A stretch of DNA of 48,824 nucleotides, taken from contig JAGSHC010000019.1 in NCBI GenBank assembly GCA_023954745.1, forward strand, positions 1-48,824, in the 5' to 3' direction. Shown here piece by piece: positions 41,973 through 45,821 of this stretch; position 1 is the first letter of the stretch, and the number at the start of each line of letters is the position of its first letter. Origin of the DNA: Deltaproteobacteria bacterium. GTDB lineage: Bacteria; Myxococcota_A; UBA796; UBA9615. The notes beneath the pieces were generated by a model that was not told the origin of the DNA, made no database searches, and saw nothing but the letters and a program-made list of their open reading frames with translations. The position numbers and the translations under genes were made by a program.

Positions 41973-42845
41973 TCATGGGGCGGGAGGGGGGGCGCCCTCG
42001 GGGGTGATGTGGACTGCGCTGACGAGACCGTTGCCGAACCACCGCTCGAACCACCCCCCGAGGTCGCCGAGGAGCTGGGCAGGCTGGACGTCCGCCAGCT
42101 CCAGAACCTCCGCCAGGGCGTCAGCGAGGGAGTTCCCCCGCGCCAGGGCGGAGAGGAGCACGAACTGCGGACGATCCAGCGCGAAGCGCCACCGGGCGGT
42201 GTCGTCCCGATAGACGCACATCCAGGAGGGGGCGGCGGCGGGGAGGACGACCTCTCCTTGGTCCCGGGCTGCGTTCATGACCTCGGTGACGGGATACGAC
42301 AACGCGAGCAAGCGCACAGCCGGGATCAGCTGCACACGGGCGCCCGCCCACTCCTCCATGGGCACCGCCGCCAGGCGGGCGTAGGGGACGGGGTCTTCGA
42401 AGGGCTCGTTCCACACGGCGTCCATGGCCTGCTGGACCGCGGCGACGTCCGCCGCGACCCGCCAGAGCGTGCCGTCCTCCTCGCCTTGCTCCGCCAGCCA
42501 CTGCGGCGCAGCCGCCCCGACGCGGTCCAAGGTCCACGTCGAGGAAGGATGCTCGGCGAGGTACCGCTTCATGGCCTCCGCGAAGACGCGCTCCCCCAGG
42601 AGGTGCTGGACCGCAGGCATCTCCCCCGCGAGCACCTCGACGATCCGGTCGAAGTAGGCGAACCCATAGATGTGCAGTTGCTCCAACGCCGACAGCCGGT
42701 CGTTGCCCGGAATCACATCCTCGAGACGCCGCGCCCCGTGGGGCAGCAGTCCTTCCGCCGTCGCCGCCCGGACCCCCTCGTCCACCCCGGTCGGATGGGT
42801 GACCACCCGGAGGAAGAAGCGCTCGAGCCGGTCCAGGGGGCTCAC
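41973..42845 (-). CDS. bufC: Bufferin partner protein BufC (DUF2063)
   Basis: The ~290-residue protein matches the DUF2063 putative DNA-binding-like fold of BufC/HvfC (LERFFLRVVTHP, LEQLHIYGFAYFDRIVEVLAGEMPAVQHLLGERVFAEAMKRYLAEHPSSTW). BufC works with the DUF692 (MNIO) enzyme BufB to modify cysteines of the bufferin precursor. GTG 42845 overlaps the bufB stop as GTGA and is preferred; GTG at 42860 would give 295 residues. It lies in the operon bufA-bufB-bufC on the minus strand. Confidence 0.88.
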   Translation of the reverse strand: MSPLDRLERFFLRVVTHPTGVDEGVRAATAEGLLPHGARRLEDVIPGNDRLSALEQLHIYGFAYFDRIVEVLAGEMPAVQHLLGERVFAEAMKRYLAEHPSSTWTLDRVGAAAPQWLAEQGEEDGTLWRVAADVAAVQQAMDAVWNEPFEDPVPYARLAAVPMEEWAGARVQLIPAVRLLALSYPVTEVMNAARDQGEVVLPAAAPSWMCVYRDDTARWRFALDRPQFVLLSALARGNSLADALAEVLELADVQPAQLLGDLGGWFERWFGNGLVSAVHITPEGAPPPAP

Positions 42846-43657
42846 CGCCACTCCCGACACCGCGCCACCTCGTCCTCGAGCACGTCGAAGTCAGGGATGT
42901 TGCCGTCCCACTCCAGCAGGGTCGCGATGCCGCCCGTGTGCTTCTGGACCCAACCGTAGAGCTCCCACACGGCGTCGCAGACGTGGTCGTCGTGGGTGTC
43001 GATGCAGTGAGTGCCGTGGTCGGTGTGCCCGGCGAGGTGGTTCTGCACGACCCGGTCCCAGGGGACATCACGCAGGTACTGCATGGGGTCCAGGCCGTGG
43101 TTGCGGCAGGTCACGTAGACATTGTTCACGTCGAGCAGCAGCGCGCAGTCCGACTCGTCCGCCATGCGGGCGATCCACTCCACCTCGGACATGCAGTCGC
43201 TGGCGAAGCCGAGGTAGGTCGATGGGTTCTCGAGCACGAGGGGGCGGCCGAGCACTCCCTGCACCACCTTGATGCGCTCGACGACGTGCGCCAGGGACTC
43301 CTCGGTGTAGGGAACGGGGTAGAGATCATGGCCGTTGCGCCCTGCGACGCCCGTCCAACACACATGGTCTCCCATCCAGGCGACGTCGATGCGGTCGGCG
43401 AGGCGCCGCAGCGCCGCGAGGTAGTCCATGTCGAGGGGATCGGTGGACCCGATGGACATGGAGACGCCGTGCAGGACGACGGGATAGTCCCGGCGCACCT
43501 GCTCGAGCACCCGCATCGGGCGCCCCTCGGTGGCCATGAAGTTCTCCGAGATGACCTCGAACCAGTCGACGCGCGTCGGCCCCTCCAACACCCGGGAGAA
43601 GTGCGGGACGCGGAGTCCAACACCCAGCCCGAGGTCGGGGAGGCCGAAGCGATTCAT
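42842..43657 (-). CDS. bufB: Bufferin-modifying MNIO enzyme BufB (DUF692)
   Basis: The 271-residue protein is a DUF692 multinuclear non-heme iron oxygenase. The TIM-barrel motifs are intact: LGVGLRVPHF, WFEVISENF, HGVSMSIGSTDPL, GDHVCW, LENPSTYLG, LLLDVNNVYV, NHLAGH and LLEWDGNIPDF, which supply the His/Asp/Glu metal ligands. With BufC it converts Cys of the bufferin to thiooxazole-type groups that bind copper. It begins 19 bp after bufA and overlaps bufC by 4 bp. The frame extending to 44008 runs antisense-free through bufA in another frame and was rejected. Confidence 0.92.
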   Translation of the reverse strand: MNRFGLPDLGLGVGLRVPHFSRVLEGPTRVDWFEVISENFMATEGRPMRVLEQVRRDYPVVLHGVSMSIGSTDPLDMDYLAALRRLADRIDVAWMGDHVCWTGVAGRNGHDLYPVPYTEESLAHVVERIKVVQGVLGRPLVLENPSTYLGFASDCMSEVEWIARMADESDCALLLDVNNVYVTCRNHGLDPMQYLRDVPWDRVVQNHLAGHTDHGTHCIDTHDDHVCDAVWELYGWVQKHTGGIATLLEWDGNIPDFDVLEDEVARCREWR

Positions 43658-43676
43658 CGATGGAGGTGGAGGGGCG

Positions 43677-44018
43677 CTAGCCCTTGTCGGGCTTGGCCGC
43701 CTCGTCCTTCTTCTCGTCCTTCTTCTCGTCCTTCTTCTCGTCCATCTTCTCTTCGGGGGCGTGGGCGTAGTCGCCGGTGGCGCAGCCACCCTTGCCCTTG
43801 CAGCTGTTCTTGCCCGCGCAGCCGTTGTCGCCGGACTTGCAGCCCCCCTTGCCGCCGCAGGCGTTCTTGCCGGCGCAGGCATTCCCCTTCTTCTCGGCGG
43901 CCTTGCCCTTGTCGGCCTTGGTCTCCTCGTGGTGGTCCGCCAGAGCAGTGGAGGCGGTCCCGGCCAGGGCGCCAGTGACGGCGACGGCGATGAGCTTGTT
44001 GAAATCACGACGGTTCAT
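43677..44018 (-). CDS. bufA: Bufferin precursor BufA (BufA2-like), Tat-type signal
   Basis: The 113-residue precursor has a signal peptide with a twin-arginine motif (RRDFNK) and cleavage near TALA-DHH. Six Cys (48, 54, 60, 67, 73, 79) are arranged as two copies of C-AGKN(A/S)-C-xGKGG-C, i.e. C-x5-C-x5-C twice with a 6-residue linker. The C-terminus is a DEKK repeat. Bufferins are modified by BufB/BufC, exported and sequester copper. Two complete Cys modules instead of a single one suggest extra metal capacity. The SD GAGAGGAA precedes the ATG. No copper-responsive box was recognised in 44019-44172. Confidence 0.88.
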   Translation of the reverse strand: MNRRDFNKLIAVAVTGALAGTASTALADHHEETKADKGKAAEKKGNACAGKNACGGKGGCKSGDNGCAGKNSCKGKGGCATGDYAHAPEEKMDEKKDEKKDEKKDEAAKPDKG

Positions 44019-44172: not shown

Positions 44173-45375
44173 TCAGGGCAAGGGTTCCAGGACCACCTCG
44201 AACCGACCGAAGTCGTAGCGCGTCCCGATGGCGCCCAGGACCTGGACGAGGCGCTCCCGGCGTCCTTCGGCGGCCAGGGTCTTTGCCCGGTGGTAGCAGT
44301 AGGGGTTGTTGCCTCGTCGGCCCATGGTGCAGTGGGTGGTGAAGGAGCAGCCAGCCCCGCAGGTCTCACCGTAGGCGCAGGTGCCGCAGAACCCCCAGAG
44401 TTCGGAACGGTCCCGGTTCTGCACGAAGTTGAGGGCCGGCTCCGTGCTCCACACCTCCTCCAGGGTGACATCGCGCACGTTGCCGCCCACGTAGGGCGCG
44501 GTGGGAAGGCTGGGGCACGCCTTGATGGTTCCGTCGGACTCGATCGACATCGTGTAGACGCCTGCCTGGCAGCCAGTCCAATGGCGCGCGGTCCCTCCCG
44601 GGTCGGAGCGGAGGATCAGCTCGTGGGGGCTGTAGTACCCCAGGTTGTTCCCCGCCACGATGTTGAACATGTCGTCGGGGCCCAGACCCTGGGCGGATGC
44701 CTCCTCGGCGAAGGCCATCTGCAGGCCCCCGAGGGTGTCGAGGACGTCCAGGATCTGCCAGGGCTGGAGCAGGACGTCGGGCGTGTCCGCGGCCCGGCCC
44801 ATGGGCACCGTGAGCTGTCCACGCCACACCCGCACCCCGGCGTCGAACAACAGCCTCGCGGTCTGGGGGAGGACCGCGGCCGTCAGCCGGTTGATCTGGG
44901 TGTTGGCGGCGATGTTGAGCCCCGCGCTGCGCGCCGCCGAGATGGCTCGCAGCACCGCCGCGTGGCTCCCGACCTTGGCCCGCAGCGCGTCGTGCACGGC
45001 TTCGGTGCCGTCGACGCTGAACCCCATTCCTCGGAGTCCCGCCGAGGCCAGCTCCCGGGCCAGCTCCGGGGTCACCCCCCAGCCCCCCGTCTGGATGCTG
45101 GTGCGTATGCCGAGCCGCGTCAGGTAGGCGACGAGCTCGGTGAGGCCCTCCCACAGGTAGGCCTCGCCACCGATGAGGGTGACCTCCTTGGTCCCGAGGG
45201 CCACCAGCTGGTCGGCGATGGCCAACGTCTCCGCGAGAGCGAGCTCGTTGTCTCGTGCCGTGCGCGCCCGCGAGCCGCAGTGCCCACACGCGTGGTCGCA
45301 CAGCGTCGTGAGCTCCCACACGACGTACCGGGGAGTATTCCGCTCAGCGGCGGTGACGGTCCGAGAGCGGGCCAT
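44173..45375 (-). CDS. Radical SAM/SPASM peptide-modifying enzyme
   Basis: The 400-residue protein has the radical SAM cluster CDHACGHC (Cys26, 30, 33), GGEAYLWEG (SAM-binding GGE) and GFSVDGTEAVHD. The C-terminal half holds a SPASM-type set of Cys (ESDGTIKACP; CGTCAYGETCGAGC; further Cys to NPYCYH) for auxiliary 4Fe-4S clusters. Such enzymes form C-C, C-S or epimerised bonds in small peptides. It begins 5 bp after a lipoprotein gene whose protein has two LYGVP motifs, its probable substrate. It ends 154 bp before bufA on the same strand. Confidence 0.9.
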   Translation of the reverse strand: MARSRTVTAAERNTPRYVVWELTTLCDHACGHCGSRARTARDNELALAETLAIADQLVALGTKEVTLIGGEAYLWEGLTELVAYLTRLGIRTSIQTGGWGVTPELARELASAGLRGMGFSVDGTEAVHDALRAKVGSHAAVLRAISAARSAGLNIAANTQINRLTAAVLPQTARLLFDAGVRVWRGQLTVPMGRAADTPDVLLQPWQILDVLDTLGGLQMAFAEEASAQGLGPDDMFNIVAGNNLGYYSPHELILRSDPGGTARHWTGCQAGVYTMSIESDGTIKACPSLPTAPYVGGNVRDVTLEEVWSTEPALNFVQNRDRSELWGFCGTCAYGETCGAGCSFTTHCTMGRRGNNPYCYHRAKTLAAEGRRERLVQVLGAIGTRYDFGRFEVVLEPLP

Positions 45376-45380
45376 GGCGC

Positions 45381-45821
45381 TCAGCCGTCGTTCGGCACGC
45401 CGTAGAGCGTCTGCACTCCTGAGTCGTCGTCATCGGCGGCGTCGTCGTCGTCGGAGGCCGAGTCGTCGTCGTCGGCCGCGTCGTCGTCGTCGGCCGCGTC
45501 GTCGTCGTCGCTCCCCGAGTCGTCGTCGTCACCGCCGGAGTCGTCGTCGTTGGCTGCGTCGTCGTCGTCCGTCGTGGCGTCGTCGTCGTCGCTGGTGGCG
45601 TCGTCGTCGTCCGCCGCATCGTCGTCGTCCTGGGTGACGTCGTCGTCGTCCTCCGGGACCCCGTAGAGCGGTTGAGGCCCGGGCCCGGTCGGCGTGCATC
45701 CCACCAATGCCCCCAGGGCCAGTCCCAGGAGCGCCGCGCCCTTGCTCATCTCGCCCACCGGCGGCTTCGCGGGGGTGCAGTTGCCAGTGCAGACGTGGTC
45801 GTTGTCCTCAGACTCGGGCAT
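45381..45821 (-). CDS. Asp-rich YGVP-motif lipoprotein, candidate radical SAM substrate
   Basis: The 146-residue product has an odd N-terminus (CTGNC at Cys11/15) before a hydrophobic segment and lipobox LVGC (Cys42). Directly after it comes PLYGVPEDDDD (LYGVP at 52-56), then about twelve DDDD-heptads, and the protein ends with LYGVPNDG (139-143). The motif thus brackets the acidic stalk. The ATG at 45821 has a GAGGAG SD; an internal ATG at 45749 (MSKGAALLG...) would give a standard lipoprotein signal. YGxP motifs behind a lipobox are also seen in radical-SAM-associated lipoproteins of Bacteroidetes as I recall them. No function is known. Confidence 0.82.
   Translation of the reverse strand: MPESEDNDHVCTGNCTPAKPPVGEMSKGAALLGLALGALVGCTPTGPGPQPLYGVPEDDDDVTQDDDDAADDDDATSDDDDATTDDDDAANDDDSGGDDDDSGSDDDDAADDDDAADDDDSASDDDDAADDDDSGVQTLYGVPNDG
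45419..45655. repeat. GTC/GAC microsatellite coding the Asp stalk
   Basis: Runs of GTCGTCGTC recur every 21 nt (seven codons) across 45419-45655, encoding DDDD plus three variable residues. Length polymorphism by slippage is likely and would change stalk length in frame. Confidence 0.75.

What the first reader, a model, noticed from the sequence alone, without database searches (positions are those of the whole stretch)
44173..45821. Radical SAM/SPASM enzyme paired with a lipoprotein carrying two LYGVP motifs
The lipoprotein has LYGVP just after the lipid Cys and again at its very C-terminus, separated by a ~80-residue Asp-tetrad stalk. Its gene lies 5 bp ahead of a SPASM enzyme. Motif repetition in a small protein next to a radical SAM enzyme is the usual mark of a modified-peptide system. 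I recall similar YGxP motifs behind the lipobox in the radical-SAM-associated lipoproteins of Bacteroidetes (TIGRFAM rSAM_w_lipo/lipo_with_rSAM). If correct, this would be a lineage-crossing surface-modified lipoprotein family whose chemistry is unknown.
Basis: partly seen in the sequence, partly recalled or inferred. Interest (0 to 1): 0.76.

Follow-up and report, generated by a model that had tools for sequence, protein, structure and literature searches.

The report
Lipoprotein with predicted tyrosine-splicing sites
A myxobacterial surface lipoprotein carries two copies of a short site that a neighbouring enzyme, related to protein-splicing "spliceases", probably cuts and rejoins to leave a reactive chemical group, and a similar pairing recurs in about a quarter of the related genomes searched.

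Summary
P0002 (45381-45821, -) is a lipoprotein with LYGVP ten residues after the lipid Cys and again three residues from the end, with an 82-residue Asp-rich stalk between. Its stop lies 5 bp before a 400-aa radical SAM/SPASM enzyme. The Bacteroidetes rSAM_w_lipo comparison fails. The enzyme belongs to the superclade of PlpX-type "spliceases" (TIGR04103) and GDL-peptide maturases (TIGR03913). [quoted passage not shown] I therefore predict that both LYG sites are spliced before export, giving a lipid-anchored stalk with a ketoamide at base and tip.

Around this pair lies a large Myxococcota family: lipoproteins with an N-terminal zinc ribbon ahead of the signal peptide and one to several YGxP sites. 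Their model matches 102 of 132 enzyme-positive genomes but only 6 of 245 others. In 40 of 41 found away from the enzyme with a model lacking the motif, YG is present. One genome gave 27 hits. In one class the X of X-Tyr-Gly is the lipid Cys.

The pairing is well supported. The chemistry is inferred from kinship: no PlpY partner was found, and nothing was tested. Scott et al. (Chem 2022) could not be read and may cover part of this.

The parts
44173..45375 (-). Radical SAM/SPASM enzyme (P0001, 400 aa), splicease-like; CX3CX2C at C26/C30/C33 and seven SPASM Cys (269, 287, 330, 333, 339, 343, 360)
   Evidence: Pfam PF04055 and PF13186; NCBIfam TIGR04103 382 bits, TIGR03913 349 bits, both under their cut-offs; ten Cys conserved in 97% or more of 111 aligned enzymes
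45381..45821 (-). Lipoprotein precursor (P0002, 146 aa), predicted substrate
   Evidence: lipobox LVGC; GAGGAG before the ATG
45750..45821 (-). 24-residue N-terminal extension ahead of the signal peptide (degenerate leader with CTGNC; many relatives have a full zinc ribbon here)
   Evidence: Sequence compared with relatives; role as leader inferred
45699..45749 (-). Lipoprotein signal peptide, residues 25-41
   Evidence: Sequence; inferred by eye, no signal-peptide program was available
45696..45698 (-). Lipid-attachment Cys42
   Evidence: Lipobox LVGC; inferred
45654..45668 (-). Predicted splice site 1, Leu52-Tyr53-Gly54-Val55-Pro56
45408..45653 (-). Asp-rich stalk, 82 residues, 11 DDDD tetrads
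45393..45407 (-). Predicted splice site 2, Leu139-Tyr140-Gly141-Val142-Pro143, three residues from the C-terminus

Best explanation
The pair is a splicease-type radical SAM enzyme and its lipoprotein substrate. Shown by sequence: the operon-like pair, the two LYGVP sites, the enzyme's place among PlpX/GDL-type enzymes, and the recurring pairing with X-Tyr-Gly lipoproteins. Inferred: in the cytoplasm the enzyme binds the precursor, helped by the N-terminal extension (a zinc ribbon in many relatives, reduced here). [quoted passage not shown] The precursor is then exported and lipidated at Cys42, and signal peptidase II removes the leader together with the signal peptide. The result is an acidic stalk in the membrane with an electrophilic ketoamide near its anchor and another at its tip. 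Its likely use is covalent capture or inhibition of an outside protease or another nucleophile; this last step is the least certain.
For: (1) TIGR04103 and TIGR03913 are by far the best of 68 NCBIfam matches; the enzyme is 44.7% identical to the Nostoc C057 'nif11-class peptide radical SAM maturase 3', which itself passes the TIGR04103 cut-off at 853 bits. PlpX is the prototype splicease; PlpXY acts at X-Tyr-Gly, naturally MYG and LYG (PMC10533398, passages; PMC11002830, passages). (2) The Nostoc enzyme lies beside a Nif11 precursor ending IALYGLPPELF, close to QPLYGVP and QTLYGVP here. (3) In the tree the PlpX-type, Thiothrix and GDL-type enzymes lie inside the diversity of Myxococcota enzymes whose neighbours are YGxP lipoproteins; Thiothrix peptides repeat VQPVYG[AVG]I three or four times. 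(4) 71 of 104 enzyme loci with at least 40% identity have a ribbon + hydrophobic segment + YG ORF within 1.8 kb (65 of 89 where both flanks together reach 3 kb), 0 of 9 loci of distant enzymes do, and 9 of 1451 ORFs farther than 2.5 kb pass (the last is per ORF, not per locus). (5) Co-occurrence: 102 genomes with both, 30 enzyme only, 6 lipoprotein only, 239 neither, of 377; odds ratio 135. (6) A ribbon-to-lipid-Cys model with no YG columns (A2) found lipoproteins away from the enzyme: 40 of 41 have YG and 33 of 41 YGxP, against shuffle means of 10.5 and 1.6. X varies freely (C, A, L, D, E, K, R, P, V, M).
Against: No experiment. The enzyme scores well under the TIGR04103 cut-off (382 of 725), so it is not an equivalog. 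PlpX is described as working with PlpY (PMC11002830, PMC10373908, passages), and no PlpY relative was found in any fetched locus other than Nostoc by one-sequence phmmer. The LYG tags GPIRPLYGLPI and GGPIRPLYGLPI, whose core resembles the window's sites, were not accepted by PlpXY at two places in FtsZ. A few partners lack Gly after Tyr: SDYSGAV and SDYSASV in L060, CYAPG in L083, ALYAAP in L055. In two relatives (G028 and G024) the adjacent lipoprotein has QDYKS or QNYKG instead. 33 of 104 enzyme loci have no such neighbour by my filter. The window's own leader has lost most of the zinc ribbon. One lipoprotein-positive genome without a detected enzyme, G043 (83% complete), does carry a real CYGGP lipoprotein (L242). 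The enzyme is patchy near home: 0 of 6 same-genus, same-family and same-order genomes reached E 1e-60.
Confidence: 0.62

Rival explanations
1. The enzyme modifies the YGxP sites with another radical chemistry, such as a Tyr-based cross-link, cyclophane, thioether or epimerisation, and is not a splicease.
For: The enzyme is outside the TIGR04103 equivalog score. The window clade of 25 rows splits off with 100% SH-aLRT support from the rows that include the PlpX-type enzyme. PlpY is missing. PDB neighbours of the model span several SPASM chemistries (PqqE, SkfB, anSME, SuiB).
Against: Tyr and Gly are what is nearly always kept; no second side chain that could be a cross-link partner is constant (X and the +1 residue vary). 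The strongest kin and the shared LYGxP core point to splicing.
Confidence: 0.25
2. The two genes only happen to be neighbours and the lipoprotein is not the substrate; LYGVP is a structural or sorting feature of Asp-rich lipoproteins.
For: Asp-rich stalks are low in complexity. 33 of 104 homologous enzymes have no such neighbour by my filter, including the 61%-identical L054.
Against: Genome-wide co-occurrence, local enrichment, conserved dual motif in the orthologue with a different stalk, and motif classes that need only 3 changes on the enzyme tree over 44 hand-labelled rows (no shuffled comparison was printed).
Confidence: 0.07
3. The pair belongs to the bufferin-like copper operon immediately downstream (BufA2-like, BufB MNIO, HvfC-like partner at 41973-44018) and serves metal handling, with the acidic stalk as a metal binder.
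For: Same strand, 154 bp from the enzyme stop to bufA; BufB 345.7 bits over its cut-off of 310; one of the two partner lipoproteins scanned ends in PF11617, 'Putative metal-binding motif'.
Against: No BufA, BufB or BufC match at 1e-5 in the other enzyme loci of the set searched, so the neighbourhood looks private to this genome.
Confidence: 0.06

Closest known systems
PlpX/PlpY splicease and spliceotides (Morinaka 2018 Science, Scott 2022 Chem; neither read, described in PMC10533398, PMC11002830, PMC10373908)
   Same: Same enzyme superclade (44.7% identity to a TIGR04103 equivalog); X-Tyr-Gly site with a Leu-Tyr-Gly-hydrophobic-Pro context; several sites per precursor
   Different: Substrate is an exported lipoprotein, not a Nif11 or nitrile-hydratase-leader peptide; no PlpY found; enzyme under the equivalog cut-off; leader is a zinc ribbon or its remnant, placed before a signal peptide
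GDL-motif peptide maturases (TIGR03913) with DUF1843 peptides
   Same: Same superclade; peptides carry [LMP]Y[GAM]xx[IMV] near their start. The enzymes carry a zinc ribbon that the model of Myxococcota leader ribbons matches: 25.7 and 26.6 bits in two Azospirillum, 14.7 in Aureibacter, and 31.6 in the relative Tropicibacter, against 19.9 (best domain) for the best of 3 controls
   Different: Ribbon is on the enzyme rather than on the substrate; small peptides without a lipobox
TIGR04133 rSAM_w_lipo / TIGR04134 lipo_with_rSAM (Bacteroidetes)
   Same: Architecture of a SPASM enzyme beside a lipoprotein
DAG-RiPPs (RiPP-lipoprotein hybrids made by MNIO enzymes; PMC12636315, abstract, passages and section 12 read)
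   Same: Cytoplasmic modification of a lipobox-bearing precursor, then lipidation by the ordinary lipoprotein pathway
   Different: Those are MNIO products, and the authors expect leader-independent systems; here a radical SAM enzyme, in relatives often with an extra zinc-ribbon domain ahead of the signal peptide

Membership tests
Splicease (PlpX, TIGR04103) | NCBIfam equivalog score of at least 725 bits | tested here: not met
   382 bits, still the best of 68 families; the Nostoc enzyme scores 853
Splicease (PlpX, TIGR04103) | Radical SAM CX3CX2C plus SPASM cluster Cys | tested here: met
   C26, C30, C33 and seven SPASM Cys, shared with the Nostoc and Azospirillum enzymes
Splicease (PlpX, TIGR04103) | Cognate substrate with X-Tyr-Gly site(s) | tested here: met
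   Two LYG in P0002; 87 of 91 ribbon neighbours of relatives have YG. That P0002 is the substrate is itself inferred
Splicease (PlpX, TIGR04103) | Partner protein PlpY | tested here: not met
   phmmer with the Nostoc protein in the PlpY position finds only itself; a divergent or distant partner could be missed
Splicease (PlpX, TIGR04103) | Loss of tyramine from the substrate | not testable with these tools
   Needs expression and mass spectrometry
GDL-peptide maturase (TIGR03913) | Equivalog score, DUF1843 partner, zinc-ribbon tail | tested here: not met
   349 of 592 bits; no significant ribbon match in P0001; neighbour is a lipoprotein
rSAM_w_lipo (TIGR04133/04134) | Scores over the curated cut-offs | tested here: not met
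   Enzyme 127 of 425 bits, P0002 no match
DAG-RiPP (RiPP-lipoprotein hybrid) | Lipobox precursor beside a RiPP-type modifying enzyme | tested here: met
DAG-RiPP (RiPP-lipoprotein hybrid) | Modified core and lipidated N-terminal Cys shown chemically | not testable with these tools
   Needs mass spectrometry

The most novel reading that the evidence does not exclude
Many Myxococcota run a proteome-scale splicing system. One or a few spliceases recognise a zinc-ribbon leader ahead of the signal peptide and splice X-Tyr-Gly sites in a whole set of surface lipoproteins (27 model hits in one genome). Signal peptidase II doubles as the leader protease. In the CYG class the lipid-bearing Cys itself becomes the alpha-keto-beta-amino acid, which would be a new kind of lipoprotein N-terminus. 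The surface would then display many electrophilic ketoamides.
Probability: 0.4. Interest if true: 0.87.

Novelty: new variant of a known kind. Interest (0 to 1): 0.74.

Why it matters
If true, tyramine splicing is not only a way to make small peptides but a general modification of surface lipoproteins across a phylum, with a leader type (a zinc ribbon) for which I found no description. It would place backbone ketoamides, which react with nucleophiles and are reported as protease inhibitors, on the outside of Myxococcota, and would give a meaning to a large set of YGxP lipoproteins for which the NCBIfam scans gave no family. It is directly testable by co-expression and mass spectrometry, and could provide new enzymes for protein labelling at LYG tags.

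Tried and rejected
TIGR04133/04134 membership: rejected on score; the TIGR04134 genome search rang in no control, so it proves nothing. Chance motif: rejected. PlpY partner: none found. More LYG[VIM]P lipoproteins in the window's genome with a codon-restricted pattern: the four other hits lie inside large ORFs with no sign of such a lipoprotein. The ribbon model A2 gave four weak hits in the window's genome; of the two looked at, one is a generic ribbon without YG and the other gave no passing ORF. Solved-structure and fold searches show only a general SPASM fold. Promoter/terminator scan: nothing. A ribbon link between leaders and GDL enzymes is suggestive only: three enzyme ribbons beat the 3 controls, but Aureibacter does not, and one leader matches the TIGR03913 tail (positions 426-456) at E 0.00068 while other leaders match unrelated zinc ribbons about as well. 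Literature: no paper holds 'Myxococcota', 'radical SAM', 'lipoprotein' and 'RiPP' together; one hit for a broader set, the DAG-RiPP preprint; the rSAM/lipoprotein/SPASM/YGxP search gave one unrelated paper. These searches cover open-licence papers only. Scott 2022 (Chem), the most relevant paper, is not held.

Rows dropped: the tree used 76 of 122 enzymes, thinned by hand; two loci of contigs already counted were removed before the count, but close relatives were not; 1 of 91 neighbours was left out of the Tyr count because it is a 691-aa unrelated ORF; 5 of 40 stretches fetched for the genome-wide test gave no passing new ORF, and the 40 stretches were my choice from the matches listed, out of six of its 16 genomes; motif classes were assigned by hand to 44 of 76 rows. 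Of the loci returned, only six were examined.

Full report
What is there. On the minus strand, a 146-aa lipoprotein gene (45381-45821) is followed after 5 bp by a 400-aa radical SAM/SPASM gene (44173-45375). The lipoprotein has a 24-residue extension, a signal peptide, a lipobox LVGC (Cys42), LYGVP at 52-56, an 82-residue stalk with 11 DDDD tetrads, LYGVP at 139-143 and three last residues. The only two Tyr of the mature part are those in the motifs, and none of 100,000 shuffles gives two LYGVP.

The enzyme. Pfam gives Radical_SAM and SPASM. Ten Cys are kept in at least 97% of 111 family enzymes, including the Nostoc and Azospirillum ones. The AlphaFold2 model (mean pLDDT 87.8) matches PqqE, SkfB, anSME and SuiB at the fold level, which says SPASM-type enzyme and no more. 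A review describes PlpX as a SPASM enzyme of IPR026482; that this entry equals TIGR04103 is my recall.

Known kin. tblastn over plasmids found seven records. Nostoc sp. C057 carries, in order, a Nif11 precursor ending IALYGLPPELF, the PlpX-type enzyme (853 bits to TIGR04103) and a 71-aa protein in the PlpY position. Azospirillum and Aureibacter have DUF1843 peptides with [LMP]Y[GAM]xx[IMV] beside the enzyme (DUF1843 confirmed for the two scanned). Thiothrix enzymes lie beside peptides with three or four VQPVYG[AVG]I repeats. PlpXY excises tyramine from X-Tyr-Gly, naturally MYG and LYG; the paper's tag list includes GPIRPLYGLPI, which was not accepted at the place in FtsZ where it was put, as most tags in that protein were not (PMC10533398, passages). 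The core context here, PLYGVP/TLYGVP, resembles these splicease-linked sites.

The larger family. The window's enzyme has relatives at E 1e-40 in 27 of 58 near genomes and at E 1e-60 in 132 of 377 genomes of its phylum, the window's own genome included in both. The phylum is Myxococcota by inference: three unnamed contigs match in length the named Sandaracinus and 'Deltaproteobacteria' contigs, and this was not checked further. Around many of these enzymes lie lipoproteins with a CxxC...CxxC zinc ribbon, then a hydrophobic segment, usually with a Cys after it, then YGxP sites, then often an acidic tail (PF11617 over its gathering score in one of two scanned). My filter did not ask for YG, yet 87 of 91 have it; 131 of 215 Tyr in these tails are followed by Gly, at a Gly frequency of 13%, and the +2 residue is Pro in 71 of 130 sites; X is Cys in 26 of 130. 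The four without YG are two SDYS proteins (L060), one CYAPG (L083) and one unrelated ORF (L150). NCBIfam scans of 22 leaders and of three full relatives gave no lipoprotein family over its cut-off.

Controls. 71 of 104 enzyme loci (at least 40% identity) have such an ORF within 1.8 kb, 0 of 9 loci of distant enzymes do, and 9 of 1451 ORFs farther than 2.5 kb pass the same filter; 33 of 104 do not, the window among them because its ribbon is reduced to CTGNC. By genome, 102 have both, 30 enzyme only, 6 lipoprotein only and 239 neither (genomes are related, so the odds ratio of 135 is not a clean probability). The first lipoprotein model A1 was built from enzyme neighbours and includes YG. A second model, A2, stops at the lipid Cys; in 16 enzyme-positive genomes it matched all 16, with 27 hits in G325. 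Among matches away from the listed enzyme genes in six of these genomes I found 41 ribbon lipoproteins, of which 40 have YG and 33 YGxP, where shuffles give 10.5 and 1.6. A2 on the six lipoprotein-only and seven of the enzyme-only genomes gave mostly weak hits. Of six of those loci examined, two are true CYGGP lipoproteins (L242 in G043, where no enzyme was found; L243 in G317, which has the enzyme and so was missed by A1), two are generic ribbons without YG and two gave no passing ORF.

Closest orthologue. L055:3868-4326, beside a 60%-identical enzyme, has CPDCNTTLSALNRCAC, a lipobox, IALYGMPP, an acidic/Pro stalk and VQAIYGMPMTDDEPPVER at the end. The same two places are kept although the stalk sequence is quite different. 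This is the best single argument that the two motifs, not the stalk, are what is selected.

Evolution. In the tree of 76 enzymes the window sits in a clade of 25 with 100% SH-aLRT; the PlpX-type, Thiothrix and GDL enzymes fall among other Myxococcota enzymes with YGxP lipoproteins (fork of 23 rows, support 91; many inner forks are open and the root rests on one long outgroup). Motif class (Cys directly before Tyr, or spaced) needs three changes on that tree, so substrate and enzyme types seem to travel together.

How it probably works. Shown: pairing, sites, enzyme kinship. Inferred: cytoplasmic splicing of both LYG sites, export, lipidation at Cys42, removal of leader plus signal peptide by signal peptidase II, and a stalk with a ketoamide at base and tip. 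A lipoprotein route for modified peptides is already shown for MNIO products, called DAG-RiPPs (PMC12636315; abstract, passages and section 12). Ketoamide products of spliceases are described as protease inhibitors (PMC11117315, passages; PMC10373908, passages), so inhibition or covalent capture at the surface is the leading guess for function, at low confidence.

What speaks against it. A different radical reaction at the same sites stays possible.

Novelty. The enzyme type and reaction are known. The substrate class (zinc-ribbon-led lipoproteins, many per genome, with a CYG class in which the lipid Cys is the X residue) I did not find in print, judged from listings and the passages read, and the most relevant paper could not be read.

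Noticed in passing
41973-44018 (-): A bufferin-type RiPP operon directly downstream: BufA2-like Cys-rich precursor (43677-44018, 35.6 bits, under the cut-off of 60), BufB MNIO (start 43657, 345.7 bits, over the cut-off of 310), HvfC/DUF2063-like partner (41973-42860, HvfC 41 bits under the cut-off of 142). Not found beside the other relatives of the rSAM enzyme that were searched.
   Followed up: partly
L094, L096, L095 (enzyme ends): GDL-type enzymes of Azospirillum and Aureibacter carry a C-terminal zinc ribbon, and the Tropicibacter enzyme an N-terminal one, resembling the ribbon that leads the Myxococcota lipoproteins; a possible domain swap between enzyme and substrate.
   Followed up: partly
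L045:3509-3937, L046:3538-3939: Thiothrix peptides with three to four VQPVYG[AVG]I repeats beside a PlpX-type enzyme (about 67% identical to the Nostoc one) with no PlpY relative found.
   Followed up: no
L021/L066 and L035/L067: Enzymes of the window's clade with adjacent lipoproteins that have Cys-Ser-Gln-Asp/Asn-Tyr-Lys in place of YG; the Tyr is kept but the Gly directly after it is lost.
   Followed up: no
L097:3692-3898: Agathobacter rectalis plasmid: a distant relative of the enzyme (32% identity) is preceded by a short ORF ending VMYGTGVRM, a possible X-Tyr-Gly peptide of a gut bacterium.
   Followed up: no
L092 (G001:C409): The window's same-genus relative holds two adjacent distant rSAM relatives, one with an in-frame TGA, and no close homologue of P0001.
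   Followed up: no
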